Source of the DNA: Yersinia mollaretii ATCC 43969 | GTDB lineage: Bacteria; Pseudomonadota; Gammaproteobacteria; Enterobacterales; Enterobacteriaceae | Assembly (NCBI RefSeq): GCF_013282725.1 | Contig: NZ_CP054043.1 | Span: 3,720,001 to 3,784,000 of the forward strand | DNA length: 64,000 nucleotides | Reading direction: 5' to 3' | Shown here: positions 36,309-43,038 of the stretch, piece by piece | Layout: each line of letters opens with the position of its first letter | Numbering within the stretch: position 1 is the stretch's first letter | Notes under the pieces: model-generated | The model's input: the letters and a program-made list of their open reading frames with translations, nothing else | Database searches by the model: none | Told to the model about the DNA's origin: nothing | Program-made: the position numbers and the translations under genes

Positions 36309-37433
36309 CTATATTTCTGTTTTTGAAAGATTCTTTCCGAAGAATTGATCTAATTTCCCCATGGCTTGATTCACATATTCCGGCTTCCAATAGGTTTCAA
36401 TATGGGTTGCGCCCTCAATCAGAAATAACTCTTTGTCTTTCGCAGCAGTGGCACCTTTAAAGGCTTTCTCAGTCATATAAAGGGAGTCGGCTTTGCTACC
36501 GGCTATCATCAGTAACGGCTTATTAATCAAATCCATATTGCTTGCCGCATCAAATCTCATTAAGTCGAGCAGACTACTGGCGGTGTATCTGAAGGTCGAG
36601 TTAGGGTGAGCGTGAGTCTTGCCGTAATACTCAAAACCCTGCCGATAGAGGTCAAACGGCAGTTTGGCAATTTGTTCGTCTGTCAGTTTGGCATCTCCTA
36701 GATAAATAACCTCGCCACCAGCCGCTTCCTGTGCTCGTGCATCCGAGGCTTGTTTTAAACGCTCTTGTATCGTAGAAAGCTGCGAATCCTGATAGCCGTT
36801 GCGTCTAACCAAGCCTGAGTCAAACATGCTCAGTGTCGCAATGGCACTGAAACGTTTATCTGTTTGCGCTGCTTTTAACGAGTAGCCACCGCCGCCACAA
36901 ATACCCAGTAATCCTAAACGGGCAGTGTCTACGCCGGGATATTGGCTAATGAAATCTGCCATGCCATGAATATCTTCAATGCGGTAAGCCGGTTTATCCA
37001 CATTACGAGGTAAACCCCCACTCGCCCCCTGATATGCCGCATCCGCAGTCACAGTAATGTAGCCTTGTTCAGCCAGACGCTGGGCATATAGACCCGCGAC
37101 CTGCTCTTTTACCCCTCCATTGGGGTGTGCCACCACCACTGCCGGATATTTTTTGGCGGGATCATAATTTGCCAGCGTATAAACGTTAGCAGAAATATCC
37201 AGCCCATTCAGCTTATAGGTGACCGGATGAATATTGACTTTGCCTTTCACATTTTCAGTAATCGCGTCGTCATAAGCTAAGGTAAATGGATTTAATTTAT
37301 AATCTGCTGCCATTGCGCCCCCTGATGAAAATGTGATCACTGCCGCTAGCAAGCTTGATTTAAAAATCGGTGACGTTTTAAAAGTCGATGCACTTTTTAA
37401 AACCGATATCGCTTTGCAAACGTTATGTTTCAT
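36309..37433 (-). CDS. Exported alpha/beta hydrolase with a Cys nucleophile
   Basis: The 374-residue protein has an unusually long n-region, then a hydrophobic core and AMA-A cleavage site near residue 42, so it is probably periplasmic. The body is an alpha/beta hydrolase. VVAHPNGG (about 101-107) may form the oxyanion region. The nucleophile elbow is GLLGICGGGGYS, with Cys179 where most members have Ser, as in dienelactone hydrolases. AGSKADS and EGATHIE probably give the acid and His. The substrate is unknown. GGAGG lies 8 nt before the ATG. It is divergent from the response regulator at 37694, and the shared intergenic region carries a palindromic operator. Confidence 0.88.
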   Translation of the reverse strand: MKHNVCKAISVLKSASTFKTSPIFKSSLLAAVITFSSGGAMAADYKLNPFTLAYDDAITENVKGKVNIHPVTYKLNGLDISANVYTLANYDPAKKYPAVVVAHPNGGVKEQVAGLYAQRLAEQGYITVTADAAYQGASGGLPRNVDKPAYRIEDIHGMADFISQYPGVDTARLGLLGICGGGGYSLKAAQTDKRFSAIATLSMFDSGLVRRNGYQDSQLSTIQERLKQASDARAQEAAGGEVIYLGDAKLTDEQIAKLPFDLYRQGFEYYGKTHAHPNSTFRYTASSLLDLMRFDAASNMDLINKPLLMIAGSKADSLYMTEKAFKGATAAKDKELFLIEGATHIETYWKPEYVNQAMGKLDQFFGKNLSKTEI

Positions 37434-37567
37434 TTAAAAAACCTCCAGATATTCAAATAAACACGTATTACCCCGTCACTCACTTGGGTATTTTTTGAGT
37501 AGGGATAGGCTGGCAGGTAGTCTAAGGGGGTCATGCTGACATCAACGTGACTGCCAGATAACATGTT

Positions 37568-37616
37568 TGTCAGTGACATAAAGACTTTTCTGACAAAAAT
37601 GTCAGGAAAATGTCAG
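37568..37616 (+). promoter_or_regulatory. Candidate response-regulator operator upstream of the two-component genes
   Basis: The palindrome CTGACA-AAAA-TGTCAG is at 37590-37605. A further TGTCAG follows at 37611 (11 bp, one helical turn, from the second half-site), and TGTCAGTGACA is at 37568-37578. The same CTGACA-N4-TGTCAG occurs at 39822. The layout resembles sites of CusR/HprR/CopR-type regulators (TTACA or TGACA, N4-6, TGTAA or TGTCA). Confidence 0.7.
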
Positions 37617-37693
37617 CTTGGTGTTAGTCATGAAGCGCTAAGATAGGTGAAATGAGATTTTTATTATCCTGACCGACAAAGGGAGAGAGAAAC

Positions 37694-40882: not shown

Positions 40883-40901
40883 TAAATAAGAGGAACAGAC
40901 A

Positions 40902-41975
40902 TTGAAAACCTTACTCAAAACATTTACCGCCTGTATGTTGATGGGTGGGCTGATTCCGCAATCTGCATTCGCTGAGCCGACAAAACCCTTAGTGATTCAG
41001 TCTCAGGGAAGCTTTGCCGCAGGTGGGGCGATCATGACGGCACCGGGTCAGTTTGATCCGAAAAAGCCACTGGACTCCGCTGGCCAGAGTTATCATGGTG
41101 ATCACGCCGCTGTGTTTTATCAGATCCCTGAGAACCCTCACAAATATCCTATTGTGATGTTACACGGTGCGGGGCAGTCTTCCCGGACATGGGAAAGCAC
41201 GCCGGATGGGCGCGAGGGTTTTCAGAATATCTTCCTGCGCCGTGGCTTCTCAACCTATTTGGTCGATCAACCCCGTCGGGGCAATGCCGGACGCAGCATG
41301 GTAGAAGGCACGATCAAGCCCGTTGGCGATGAGCAATTATGGTTTAATCAGTTCCGTCTGGGGGTCTGGCCTGATTTCTTTGATGGTGTTCAGTTCTCCC
41401 ATGATAAAGAGGCGTTAAACCAGTACTACCGTCAGATGACTCCCAATACTGGCCCTTTTGATATTAATGTGATTTCAGATGCCCTGTCAGCCGTAGTGGA
41501 TAAATCTGGCCCGGCTATTTTATTTACTCACTCTCAGGGTGGCGGCCCGGGCTGGTTTACTGCGATGAAGAACGCCAAGGTCAAAGGGATTGTCGCGTTT
41601 GAACCCGGCAGCAGCTTTGTCTTTCCTGAAGGCGAGGTTCCCCCTCCAACAAAGAACGCTTTTGATACCGTCAAAGGAGAGTCGGTGCCCTTGGGTCAGT
41701 TTATGGCACTGACTAAAATCCCGGTCCTGATTATTTACGGTGACAATATTCCCGATAAACCGAGCGCTTTGCCTGCACAAGATAGCTGGCGCGCCCGACT
41801 GGCTGTGGCGCGTCAATGGCGGGATGTGGTGAATAAGCATGGCGGAGACGTGACGGTGATCCATCTGCCGGAAATTGGCATCAAAGGGAACACTCACTTC
41901 CCGTTCTCAGATCTGAATAATATCGACATCGCCGATCAGGTATCGACATTCCTGAAAGAGAAAAACCTCCAATAA
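40902..41975 (+). CDS. Exported alpha/beta hydrolase
   Basis: The 357-residue protein has a signal peptide (cleavage after SAFA, residue 24). VMLHGAGQSSRTWESTPDGR (about 85-104) forms the oxyanion loop, and Ser211 in FTHSQGGGPGW is the nucleophile. LIIYGDNIP and KGNTHFPFSD probably give the acid and the catalytic His. It belongs to a widespread family of exported esterase-like proteins whose substrates are unknown. The short spacing (19 bp) to the cupin gene indicates one operon. AGAGGAAC before the start is a fair ribosome binding site; the start appears to be TTG at 40902. Confidence 0.88.
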   Translation: MKTLLKTFTACMLMGGLIPQSAFAEPTKPLVIQSQGSFAAGGAIMTAPGQFDPKKPLDSAGQSYHGDHAAVFYQIPENPHKYPIVMLHGAGQSSRTWESTPDGREGFQNIFLRRGFSTYLVDQPRRGNAGRSMVEGTIKPVGDEQLWFNQFRLGVWPDFFDGVQFSHDKEALNQYYRQMTPNTGPFDINVISDALSAVVDKSGPAILFTHSQGGGPGWFTAMKNAKVKGIVAFEPGSSFVFPEGEVPPPTKNAFDTVKGESVPLGQFMALTKIPVLIIYGDNIPDKPSALPAQDSWRARLAVARQWRDVVNKHGGDVTVIHLPEIGIKGNTHFPFSDLNNIDIADQVSTFLKEKNLQ

Positions 41976-42186
41976 ATAGGCACATAGCGCCACGTACTCA
42001 CCATTAATGCAACAACGGACAAGGGTGGCGACGATTTGGAGAGCATAAATCGCTGCCCGCCAGGTCGTCATAGTCCCGCTCTATTTATTAACTCAATTCA
42101 TAAAGCTATGCGGAATCTAGTCCCTAATCTTATGGCCACACTTGCACTATCCTTTTGGTAGCTAACACATGACACAGGAGATCACG

Positions 42187-43038
42187 ATGAACACGGTGAC
42201 ATTAAATAACGGCATTCAGATGCCGTTACTGGGCTTTGGCGTTTTTCAGATGACGGACCCCTCCGAGTGTGAGCGGGCAGTGATTGATGCTATTGATGTG
42301 GGATACCGTCTAATTGATACAGCGGCCTCTTATCAGAATGAAACACAAGTGGGTAATGCATTAAAGCAGAGCGGCATTGCACGAAATGAACTCTTTGTTA
42401 CCACCAAACTCTGGTTACAGGACACTCACTATGAAGGCGCAAAAGCACAATTTGAGCGCTCGCTTAACCGTCTACAGCTTGATTACGTTGATCTTTATTT
42501 GATTCATCAGCCCTATGGCGATGTTCATGGCGCATGGCGTGCCATGGAAGAGTTATATCAGGCGGGGAAAATCCGGGCGATTGGTGTCAGCAATTTTCAT
42601 CCTGATCGCCTCGCAGACCTGATGGCCTTTAACAAAATCATACCAGCAGTGAATCAAATTGAGGTCAACCCCTTTAACCAGCAACTGCATGCGGTACCGT
42701 GGATGCAAAGTCGCACCATCCAGCCCGAAGCTTGGGCACCCTTTGCTGAGGGGCGCAATGGATTGTTCCAGAATCCACTGCTCACGGCCATTGGTGAGAA
42801 GTATGGCAAAAGTGTGGGTCAGGTTGTTCTGCGCTGGATTTATCAACGTGGCATTGTTTCGCTGGCCAAATCCGTTCGCAAAGAGCGCATGACGGAAAAT
42901 ATCAATGTGTTGGATTTTGAACTTAACGCCGAAGAGATGACGCGGATCGCCGCTATGGACACCGCCACCAGTGCCTTCTTCTCTCACCGTGATCCGGCGA
43001 TGGTTGAGTGGCTGACTCATCGTAAGCTCGATGTTTAA
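42187..43038 (+). CDS. Aldo/keto reductase (2,5-diketo-D-gluconate reductase-like)
   Basis: The 283-residue NADPH-dependent oxidoreductase has the AKR catalytic tetrad D44, Y49, K74 and H107 (RLIDTAASYQNE; VTTKLW; LYLIHQP). It also has NQIEVNPF and a C-terminal cofactor segment LAKSVRKERMTENI that replaces the usual IPKS. It has no signal peptide, unlike its upstream neighbours, so it works in the cytoplasm. The ATG at 42187 is preferred because AGGAG lies upstream; the ATG at 42169 includes that site within the frame. A 211-bp gap separates it from the hydrolase and no CTGACA-N4-TGTCAG site is present there, so it may be regulated separately. Confidence 0.92.
   Translation: MNTVTLNNGIQMPLLGFGVFQMTDPSECERAVIDAIDVGYRLIDTAASYQNETQVGNALKQSGIARNELFVTTKLWLQDTHYEGAKAQFERSLNRLQLDYVDLYLIHQPYGDVHGAWRAMEELYQAGKIRAIGVSNFHPDRLADLMAFNKIIPAVNQIEVNPFNQQLHAVPWMQSRTIQPEAWAPFAEGRNGLFQNPLLTAIGEKYGKSVGQVVLRWIYQRGIVSLAKSVRKERMTENINVLDFELNAEEMTRIAAMDTATSAFFSHRDPAMVEWLTHRKLDV

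What the first reader, a model, noticed from the sequence alone, without database searches (positions are those of the whole stretch)
36309..43038. Two-component-controlled periplasmic enzyme regulon (hydrolase, CMD, cupin, hydrolase, plus AKR)
Four of the five enzymes encoded around this CusR/CusS-like pair carry Sec signal peptides. The identical half-sites CTGACA-N4-TGTCAG occur at 37590-37605 (between the divergent hydrolase and the regulator) and at 39822-39837 (before the CMD-cupin-hydrolase genes). Shared operator, tight spacing (53 and 19 bp) and export suggest one inducible periplasmic pathway sensed at the membrane, for example breakdown or detoxification of a small carbonyl, lactone or ester compound. 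I do not know a described pathway of this composition; the substrate is unknown.
Basis: partly seen in the sequence, partly recalled or inferred. Interest (0 to 1): 0.8.

Follow-up and report, generated by a model that had tools for sequence, protein, structure and literature searches.

The report
Periplasmic enzyme regulon with copper-type box
A sensor-regulator pair of the copper-sensor family sits with exported enzymes and, by a conserved DNA switch that recurs in dozens of gut and plant bacteria and on plasmids, most likely turns them on together; no copper genes lie with it and the signal is still unknown.

Summary
Both CTGACA-N4-TGTCAG sites are real; the only other exact copy in the 4.6 Mb genome is a tRNA-Pro terminator stem. 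The half-sites are the published CusR/CopR consensus, but here they belong to a longer operator, TGACA-N4-TGTCAG-N6-GTCAG, 22 bp before a -10-like hexamer at both sites. Among 392 genomes of the family, 42 carry the composite operator; all 42 are among the 49 that encode this kinase or its sister, and none of the other 343 has it. Of 53 orthologous loci (7 on plasmids), 50 have a box beside the TCS and 44 carry at least three of the five enzymes. Elsewhere the same enzymes lie without the TCS and without the box (0 of 44), mostly near LysR genes. Four operators far from the TCS sit before module genes or BhsA-like frames. The kinase lacks the CusS metal segment and has one conserved periplasmic cysteine. 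Best reading: a mobile envelope-stress regulon, probably sensing thiol-reactive or oxidising compounds (inferred), controlling an exported hydrolase/redox module of unknown substrate. I found no published description in the open-access papers searched.

The parts
36309..37433 (-). Exported dienelactone-hydrolase-like / YcjY-PA2218-like alpha/beta hydrolase with Cys nucleophile (GICGG)
   Evidence: 5xb6 YcjY 8e-55, 2hdw PA2218; G-x-C-G-G in 84 of 84 aligned relatives
37547..37573 (-). Operator facing the hydrolase: CTGACA-N4-TGTTAT-N6-GTCAC (degenerate box plus third half-site)
   Evidence: 3 mismatches; TGACA-N4-TGTTA kept in 39 of 43 loci with divergent hydrolase
37590..37616 (+). Composite operator facing the RR: CTGACA-N4-TGTCAG-N6-GTCAG; -10-like TAAGAT at 37639-37644, 22 bp further
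37694..38386 (+). OmpR-type response regulator, TIGR01387 (heavy-metal RR), 65% identical to the RR beside mexMN
   Evidence: only RR over the TIGR01387 cut-off in the genome
38398..39798 (+). Sensor histidine kinase, TIGR01386; only cysteine is C124 (codon 38767-38769) in the periplasmic domain
38476..38895 (+). Periplasmic sensor domain (residues 27-166), Cache/PAS-like fold in the model
39822..39848 (+). Composite operator of the enzyme unit: CTGACA-N4-TGTCAG-N6-GTCAG; -10-like TAAAAT at 39871-39876, 22 bp further
39936..40358 (+). Exported CMD-family protein (no cysteine in the mature part)
   Evidence: (4g9q 3e-52)
40412..40882 (+). Exported cupin of the (R)-mandelonitrile-lyase family, motif HTHPLGQ...KHWH
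   Evidence: NF049940 175 bits, cut-off 140; 4bif/4uxa. That these residues bind metal is recalled
40902..41975 (+). Exported esterase-like alpha/beta hydrolase, family of 4q34, the 8gol series and esterase 1qlw
   Evidence: motif THSQG
42169..43038 (+). Cytoplasmic DkgA-like aldo/keto reductase; no box upstream here, read-through or separate promoter open
   Evidence: near the TCS in 27 of 53 orthologous loci; no + strand terminator-like site listed in 41976-42168

Best explanation
This is one regulon. The sensor kinase reads an envelope signal through a Cache/PAS-like periplasmic domain with one conserved cysteine, phosphorylates its OmpR-type partner, and the partner binds a three-half-site operator (palindrome TGACA-N4-TGTCAG plus a third GTCAG) that lies upstream of a -10-like hexamer without a recognisable -35, so it acts as an activator. 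It turns on itself, the divergent exported hydrolase, and the exported CMD-cupin-esterase unit (with the aldo/keto reductase probably following). The module most likely protects the envelope by hydrolysing, reducing or otherwise removing a thiol-reactive or oxidising organic compound or its damage products. Shown by sequence: gene set, operator, co-occurrence across genomes, operators far from the TCS. Inferred: binding by this RR, activation, the cysteine as sensor, the nature of the signal, the substrate. My odds: single regulon under this TCS 0.93; activator at the composite operator 0.85; thiol-reactive/oxidant signal 0.5; protective rather than nutritional role 0.6. The figure given is for the whole chain, HprRS-like oxidant sensing included.
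For: Composite operator at both promoters with equal spacing to a -10-like hexamer; 2 exact in the genome. 392 family genomes: 42 have it (74 sites, reversed control 0), all 42 among the 49 HK genomes, none of 343 others; 2 of 339 other genomes of a class-wide draw have it. 53 orthologous loci: box upstream 42, just after the HK 41, either 50, both 33; at least 3 of 5 enzymes in 44; 95 boxes in 874 kb against 0-6 for six patterns of altered spacing or order. 44 module loci without the TCS: no box; LysR in 36, within 500 bp in 21. Four remote operators, each 68-122 bp before CUP-CMD-flavodoxin-EST, CMD-CUP, or a BhsA-like frame. E. coli cusR and silR/silE promoters carry the same core; published consensus TGACA-N4-TGTCA for CusR/CopR (PMC12428095, passages). 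C124 in 51 of 53 ortholog rows, absent from CusS, SilS, HprS. Tat-type flavodoxin and AKR (by eye), DUF4405, nitroreductase in related modules; BhsA-like gene at 9 of 9 sister loci.
Against: No expression, binding or enzyme data. The core box is shared by several paralogous regulators, so binding by this RR rather than another is inferred, although it is the only RR over the TIGR01387 cut-off in this genome. Nine of 53 orthologous loci have fewer than three of the enzymes, among them three with HK identity of 75-77% (L217, L218, L220). 7 of 49 HK genomes lack an exact composite operator. The RR tree does not separate 'orthologous' from 'sister' loci: six sister rows fall, weakly supported, beside the window's own group; the 66% HK line was drawn. 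C124 is missing in 2 of 53 orthologs (L247, L248), and a lone cysteine may be structural. Conserved methionines (M41, M52, M154) could sense instead. The genomes are related, so the co-occurrence is not a set of independent events.
Confidence: 0.5

Rival explanations
1. A copper or silver responsive system: the TCS is a functional CusRS/CopRS relative and the enzymes repair or replace metal-damaged envelope functions.
For: RR and HK belong to the heavy-metal families; core box identical to that of cusR, silR and silE promoters; the mmnRS locus, whose RR is the nearest characterised one, is reported as up-regulated by copper shock (PMC11195947, passages); CusRS does control hiuH-msrPQ in E. coli (PMC9302797, passages).
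Against: No His/Met-rich metal segment of CusS in the sensor alignment; no cusC or cusF relative (E. coli queries, E <= 1e-10) within about 9.5 kb of the HK in 55 loci; RR separate from CusR/SilR in the tree. In that paper mmnR loss had no effect on cusRS and pcoA2 with copper.
Confidence: 0.2
2. One reading: an inducible pathway that breaks down a specific small ester, lactone or carbonyl as a nutrient, its ligand bound by the sensor domain.
For: Two exported hydrolases, a cupin, CMD and AKRs; the sensor model resembles ligand-binding Cache/PAS domains; in other bacteria the module is kept near LysR genes, a common catabolic arrangement (recalled).
Against: No transporter gene inside 36309-43038; multidrug MFS, nitroreductase, flavodoxin and BhsA-like companions elsewhere fit stress better; patchy, partly plasmid-borne distribution.
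Confidence: 0.22
3. A functional stand-in for HprRS: the signal is hypochlorite or chloramine oxidation of methionines, as in HprS. This is the nearest special case of the best explanation, without a role for C124.
For: Same layout as hprRS with a divergent periplasmic hydrolase (hiuH) and exported redox partners (PMC9302797 passages); HprS senses through two periplasmic Met and needs a membrane Cys (PMC10151825, passages); Met residues conserved here.
Against: RR 50% identical to HprR and apart in the tree; HprS periplasmic region aligns with long gaps; no msrP, msrQ or hiuH hit (E. coli queries, E <= 1e-10) within about 9.5 kb of the HK in 55 loci.
Confidence: 0.2
4. The boxes are conserved by neighbourhood only (hitch-hiking), and the enzymes answer to another regulator such as LysR.
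For: LysR genes near the module in 29 of 53 orthologous loci and in 36 of 44 loci without TCS.
Against: 0 of 44 TCS-less module loci have the box; four operators lie far from the TCS yet before module genes or BhsA-like frames; the spacing to the -10 is kept.
Confidence: 0.04

Closest known systems
E. coli HprRS with hiuH-msrPQ
   Same: Heavy-metal-type RR/HK, divergent periplasmic hydrolase, exported redox partners, inverted-repeat box between the divergent genes
   Different: RR 50% identical; different sensor domain; box CATTACAAAATTGTAATG there; other enzymes
E. coli CusRS / SilRS
   Different: No metal-ligand segment, no efflux or metallochaperone genes nearby, third half-site in the operator, separate RR clade
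Pseudomonas aeruginosa MmnRS (RR beside mexMN; that L160 is MmnRS is inferred from mexMN)
   Same: Nearest characterised RR, 65% identity; perfect core box before mexM; signal also unknown (PMC11195947 passages)
   Different: Lies with an RND pump; kinase 44% identical and without C124
Granulicella tundricola cupin hydroxynitrile lyase (4bif; organism recalled)
   Same: Cupin over the NCBIfam cut-off, same HTHPLGQ motif
   Different: Activity of the window protein untested
8gol-series hydrolases (SulE by recall) and esterase 1qlw
   Same: Same family by sequence, E about 1e-56 and 7e-38
   Different: Substrate unknown; closer to uncharacterised 4q34 (6e-117)

Membership tests
Heavy-metal RR/HK family (TIGR01387/TIGR01386) | Score over curated cut-off | tested here: met
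   RR 299.4 over 279.2, HK 409.2 over 292.55 bits
CusRS copper system | Operator core TGACA-N4-TGTCA | tested here: met
CusRS copper system | RR in the CusR/SilR clade; score over the copper/silver RR equivalog cut-off | tested here: not met
   CusR+SilR 100/99 apart from the window group; NF007346 273 bits, cut-off 420
CusRS copper system | His/Met metal-binding segment in the sensor domain; cusCFBA nearby | tested here: not met
   alignment; cusC and cusF queries without hit near the HK in 55 loci
CusRS copper system | Response to Cu or Ag | not testable with these tools
   needs a reporter assay
HprRS reactive-chlorine system | RR over the HprR equivalog cut-off | tested here: not met
   NF008567 272.9 bits, cut-off 353
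HprRS reactive-chlorine system | hiuH-msrPQ as neighbours | tested here: not met
   no hit with the three E. coli proteins near the HK in 55 loci; genes elsewhere in the genomes not searched
HprRS reactive-chlorine system | Induction by HOCl | not testable with these tools
   -
MmnRS | RR nearest to the mexMN-side RR; mexMN as neighbour | tested here: inconclusive
   RR nearest among the five references (65%), long branches; mexMN neighbours not sought systematically
(R)-mandelonitrile lyase cupins (NF049940) | Score over cut-off | tested here: met
   175.1 over 140
(R)-mandelonitrile lyase cupins (NF049940) | Cyanohydrin-cleaving activity | not testable with these tools
   -
PcaC 4-carboxymuconolactone decarboxylase | Score over cut-off | tested here: not met
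   TIGR02425 78.4, cut-off 155.7
AhpD/RclX-type peroxidases | CxxC in the mature CMD domain | tested here: not met
   only cysteines are 9 and 12, inside the signal-peptide-like N-terminus
UilS AHL lactonases (NF047920) | Score over cut-off | tested here: not met
   72.2, cut-off 400

The most novel reading that the evidence does not exclude
A so far undescribed class of thiol-switch sensor kinases: one periplasmic cysteine (C124) reads reactive electrophiles or oxidants outside the cytoplasm, and through a three-half-site version of the copper box switches on a mobile, exported detoxification and electron-supply module (flavodoxin with DUF4405 membrane partner, hydrolases, cupin, CMD), captured from LysR control in an enterobacterial ancestor.
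Probability: 0.33. Interest if true: 0.82.

Novelty: new variant of a known kind. Interest (0 to 1): 0.62.

Why it matters
It gives a regulon whose operator, regulator, targets and single candidate sensor residue are defined while the signal is not, present in 34 of 154 sampled genera of the family (HK at E <= 1e-70, sister form included) and on plasmids, two of those fetched typed as conjugative. It would show that the copper-box regulator family has been re-used for an exported enzyme system without metal genes, and it offers a handle on the natural role of cupin 'hydroxynitrile lyases', exported PcaC-like CMD proteins and DUF4405 proteins.

Tried and rejected
Third exact palindrome as a regulon member: rejected, terminator of tRNA-Pro. 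Fourth 14-mer: inside a coding frame. The one-mismatch site at 28708 in the window lies inside a coding frame resembling glutamyl-tRNA reductase (name recalled). Further regulon members in this genome: hits of the composite pattern at up to 3 mismatches (24+27 against 14+15 for the control) are not far above background; only 37547-37572 was kept, because it is conserved elsewhere. The 15 one-mismatch 16-mers were not followed, apart from 28708. Sigma-70 and terminator scans were at chance level (10 against 9.4; 7 against 6.8) and list no promoter at the two -10-like hexamers. The Foldseek 'pdb' search could not be run; the VIA-align list is a second look only, and TlpB, WalK, CusS and PhoQ are close in Z, so it gives the fold class, not the ligand. 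Paper searches (10 of 10; open-access PMC only) gave no listing that I recognised as describing this gene set or regulon; subscription papers were not searched. Papers: passages only were seen of PMC9302797, PMC8249747, PMC2631605, PMC10151825, PMC10587679, PMC7464077, PMC7950407, PMC11195947 and PMC12428095. The CMD gene YPTB3581 in PMC2631605 (ratio 0.573) was not matched to the window gene and is not used. 31 of 80 loci have fewer than 3 module genes by my thresholds; one of them (L121) has a lone box, not followed. In one search at most 4 candidates per genome were scored, so weaker second kinases may be missed.
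Full report
What is there. Pfam, NCBIfam and PDB comparisons: DLH/YcjY-type hydrolase with a Cys nucleophile motif, heavy-metal RR and HK over their curated cut-offs, a CMD protein below the PcaC cut-off, a cupin over the (R)-mandelonitrile lyase cut-off with 4bif as nearest chain, an esterase of the 4q34/8gol/1qlw family, and a DkgA-like AKR below that family's cut-off. Four of five enzymes have a Sec-like N-terminus by inspection. 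The nearest named relatives are Yersinia similis and Y. thracica (cupin 88 and 85% identity; records of the window's own genome may be left out there), so I take the window to be a Yersinia of the pseudotuberculosis group (inference).

The operator. The two 16-mers are exact; the third copy in the genome is a tRNA-Pro terminator. TGACA-N4-TGTCA is the published CusR/CopR consensus (PMC12428095, passages seen; see also PMC11195947, passages seen) and I find the same core in the E. coli cusR, silR and silE promoters fetched here. Stacking 43 different upstream-facing and 50 downstream-facing boxes of orthologous loci, the window's included, shows more: a third half-site, giving TGACA-N4-TGTCAG-N6-GTCAG, and a -10-like hexamer. 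In the window the gap from the third half-site to that hexamer is 22 bp at both promoters. The composite pattern occurs twice exactly in the genome, never with one mismatch and once with two. A further degenerate copy, CTGACA-N4-TGTTAT-N6-GTCAC, faces the divergent hydrolase (37547-37573, minus strand); its TGACA-N4-TGTTA form is kept in 39 of 43 orthologous loci with a divergent hydrolase.

Distribution. With the HK as query, 11 of 25 genomes of the genus match at E <= 1e-60 and 49 of 392 of the family (34 of 154 genera) at E <= 1e-70 (at most 4 candidates per genome scored). I fetched 55 of the 58 non-self places and seven annotated plasmid loci with the TCS. After seeing their neighbourhoods I split them by HK identity at 66%: 53 orthologous and 9 sister loci. 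Orthologous: box upstream of the RR unit 42, just after the HK 41, either 50, both 33; cupin 43, CMD 42, esterase 35, hydrolase 45, AKR 27, flavodoxin 34 of 53; at least three of five enzymes in 44. The nine others include three loci with HK identity of 75-77% (L217, L218, L220) that have the box and a BhsA-like gene but not the enzymes. Sister: box upstream 4 of 9, none with three enzymes, but a BhsA-like gene in 9 of 9 against 9 of 53. Six patterns of altered spacing or order give 0-6 matches where the real box gives 95, in 874 kb.

Independent checks. (a) Composite operator over the same 392 genomes: 42 genomes, 74 sites, reversed control 0; all 42 belong to the 49 HK genomes, none of the other 343 has one; seven HK genomes lack it. 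In a class-wide draw, 2 of 339 other genomes have it (not examined). Genomes are related, so this is not a count of independent events. (b) 70 of the 74 sites lie within 10 kb of an HK hit (my reading of the coordinates). The other four, one of them 11.5 kb away, stand 68-122 bp before CUP-CMD-flavodoxin-EST (G751), CMD-CUP with divergent hydrolase (G513), and BhsA-like frames (G751, and G392, whose kinase is of the sister kind) (the BhsA-like label of these two frames rests on likeness to the Pfam-tested frame). (c) Of the 80 loci found with the cupin (the best 80 kept of 515), 49 have at least three module genes; 5 have the TCS and all 5 have the box; 44 lack the TCS, none of them has the box, and 36 have a LysR gene, 21 within 500 bp. 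So the enzyme module is wider than this TCS, and the TCS-plus-box looks like an enterobacterial form of control; that it is the younger one is inference.

Mobility. tblastn against plasmids gives 17 records with the RR at 80-90% identity (among the best 5000) and 19 of 87 with the esterase at 80-90%; those listed are from Klebsiella, Escherichia, Citrobacter, Pantoea, Erwinia and, for the esterase, Chimaeribacter. Among E. coli genomes 6 of 5426 have an RR match over at least 80% of the gene; one was looked at.

Function. Module relatives add a Tat-type flavodoxin and a Tat-type AKR (twin arginines by eye), DUF4405 membrane proteins, further AKRs, SDR, nitroreductase and MFS, and in an Agrobacterium plasmid also cytochrome P460 and ApbE. 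This recalls HprRS with hiuH and msrPQ (PMC9302797, passages) in design: divergent periplasmic hydrolase, exported redox enzymes, heavy-metal-type TCS. HprS uses periplasmic Met residues and a membrane Cys (PMC10151825, passages). A CMD-family protein, RclX, is part of a hypochlorite response in Pseudomonas (PMC7950407, passages), but it is of the CxxC kind and the one here is not. I therefore favour an envelope-stress regulon answering to thiol-reactive or oxidising compounds; metal, nutrient and HprRS-like readings remain open with the odds given. No listing in my paper searches describes it (calls given under Tried and rejected).

Noticed in passing
window 6796-7070: A 124-bp unit in 2.2 tandem copies, ERIC-like by eye, between frames resembling cmoB and cutC (names recalled).
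   Followed up: partly
L212, L250, L251, L253-L258: A BhsA/YdgH-like small gene lies near the sister TCS in 9 of 9 loci, in 5 of 9 with a MarA/RamA-like gene in the locus: perhaps a second regulon of the same operator family.
   Followed up: partly
L271, L272, L273, L274: Composite operators far from the TCS sit before module genes or BhsA-like frames, which suggests action in trans.
   Followed up: yes
44 of 80 loci; also L162: Same enzyme module without the TCS, in 36 of 44 loci with a LysR gene; the Agrobacterium plasmid L162 adds DUF4405, cytochrome P460 and ApbE. Looks like a regulator swap.
   Followed up: partly
several genomes (open frames of about 350-413 aa): Cupin matches inside long open frames suggest fused proteins, perhaps CMD-cupin, in other families.
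   Followed up: no
G931:C1:100043 and G843:C3:2556 (L275, L276): The only two composite-operator matches outside the window's genome in the class-wide draw; neighbours not looked at.
   Followed up: no
window 36215-36240: 11-pair terminator-like hairpin between the divergent hydrolase and the frame resembling ychF (name recalled).
   Followed up: no
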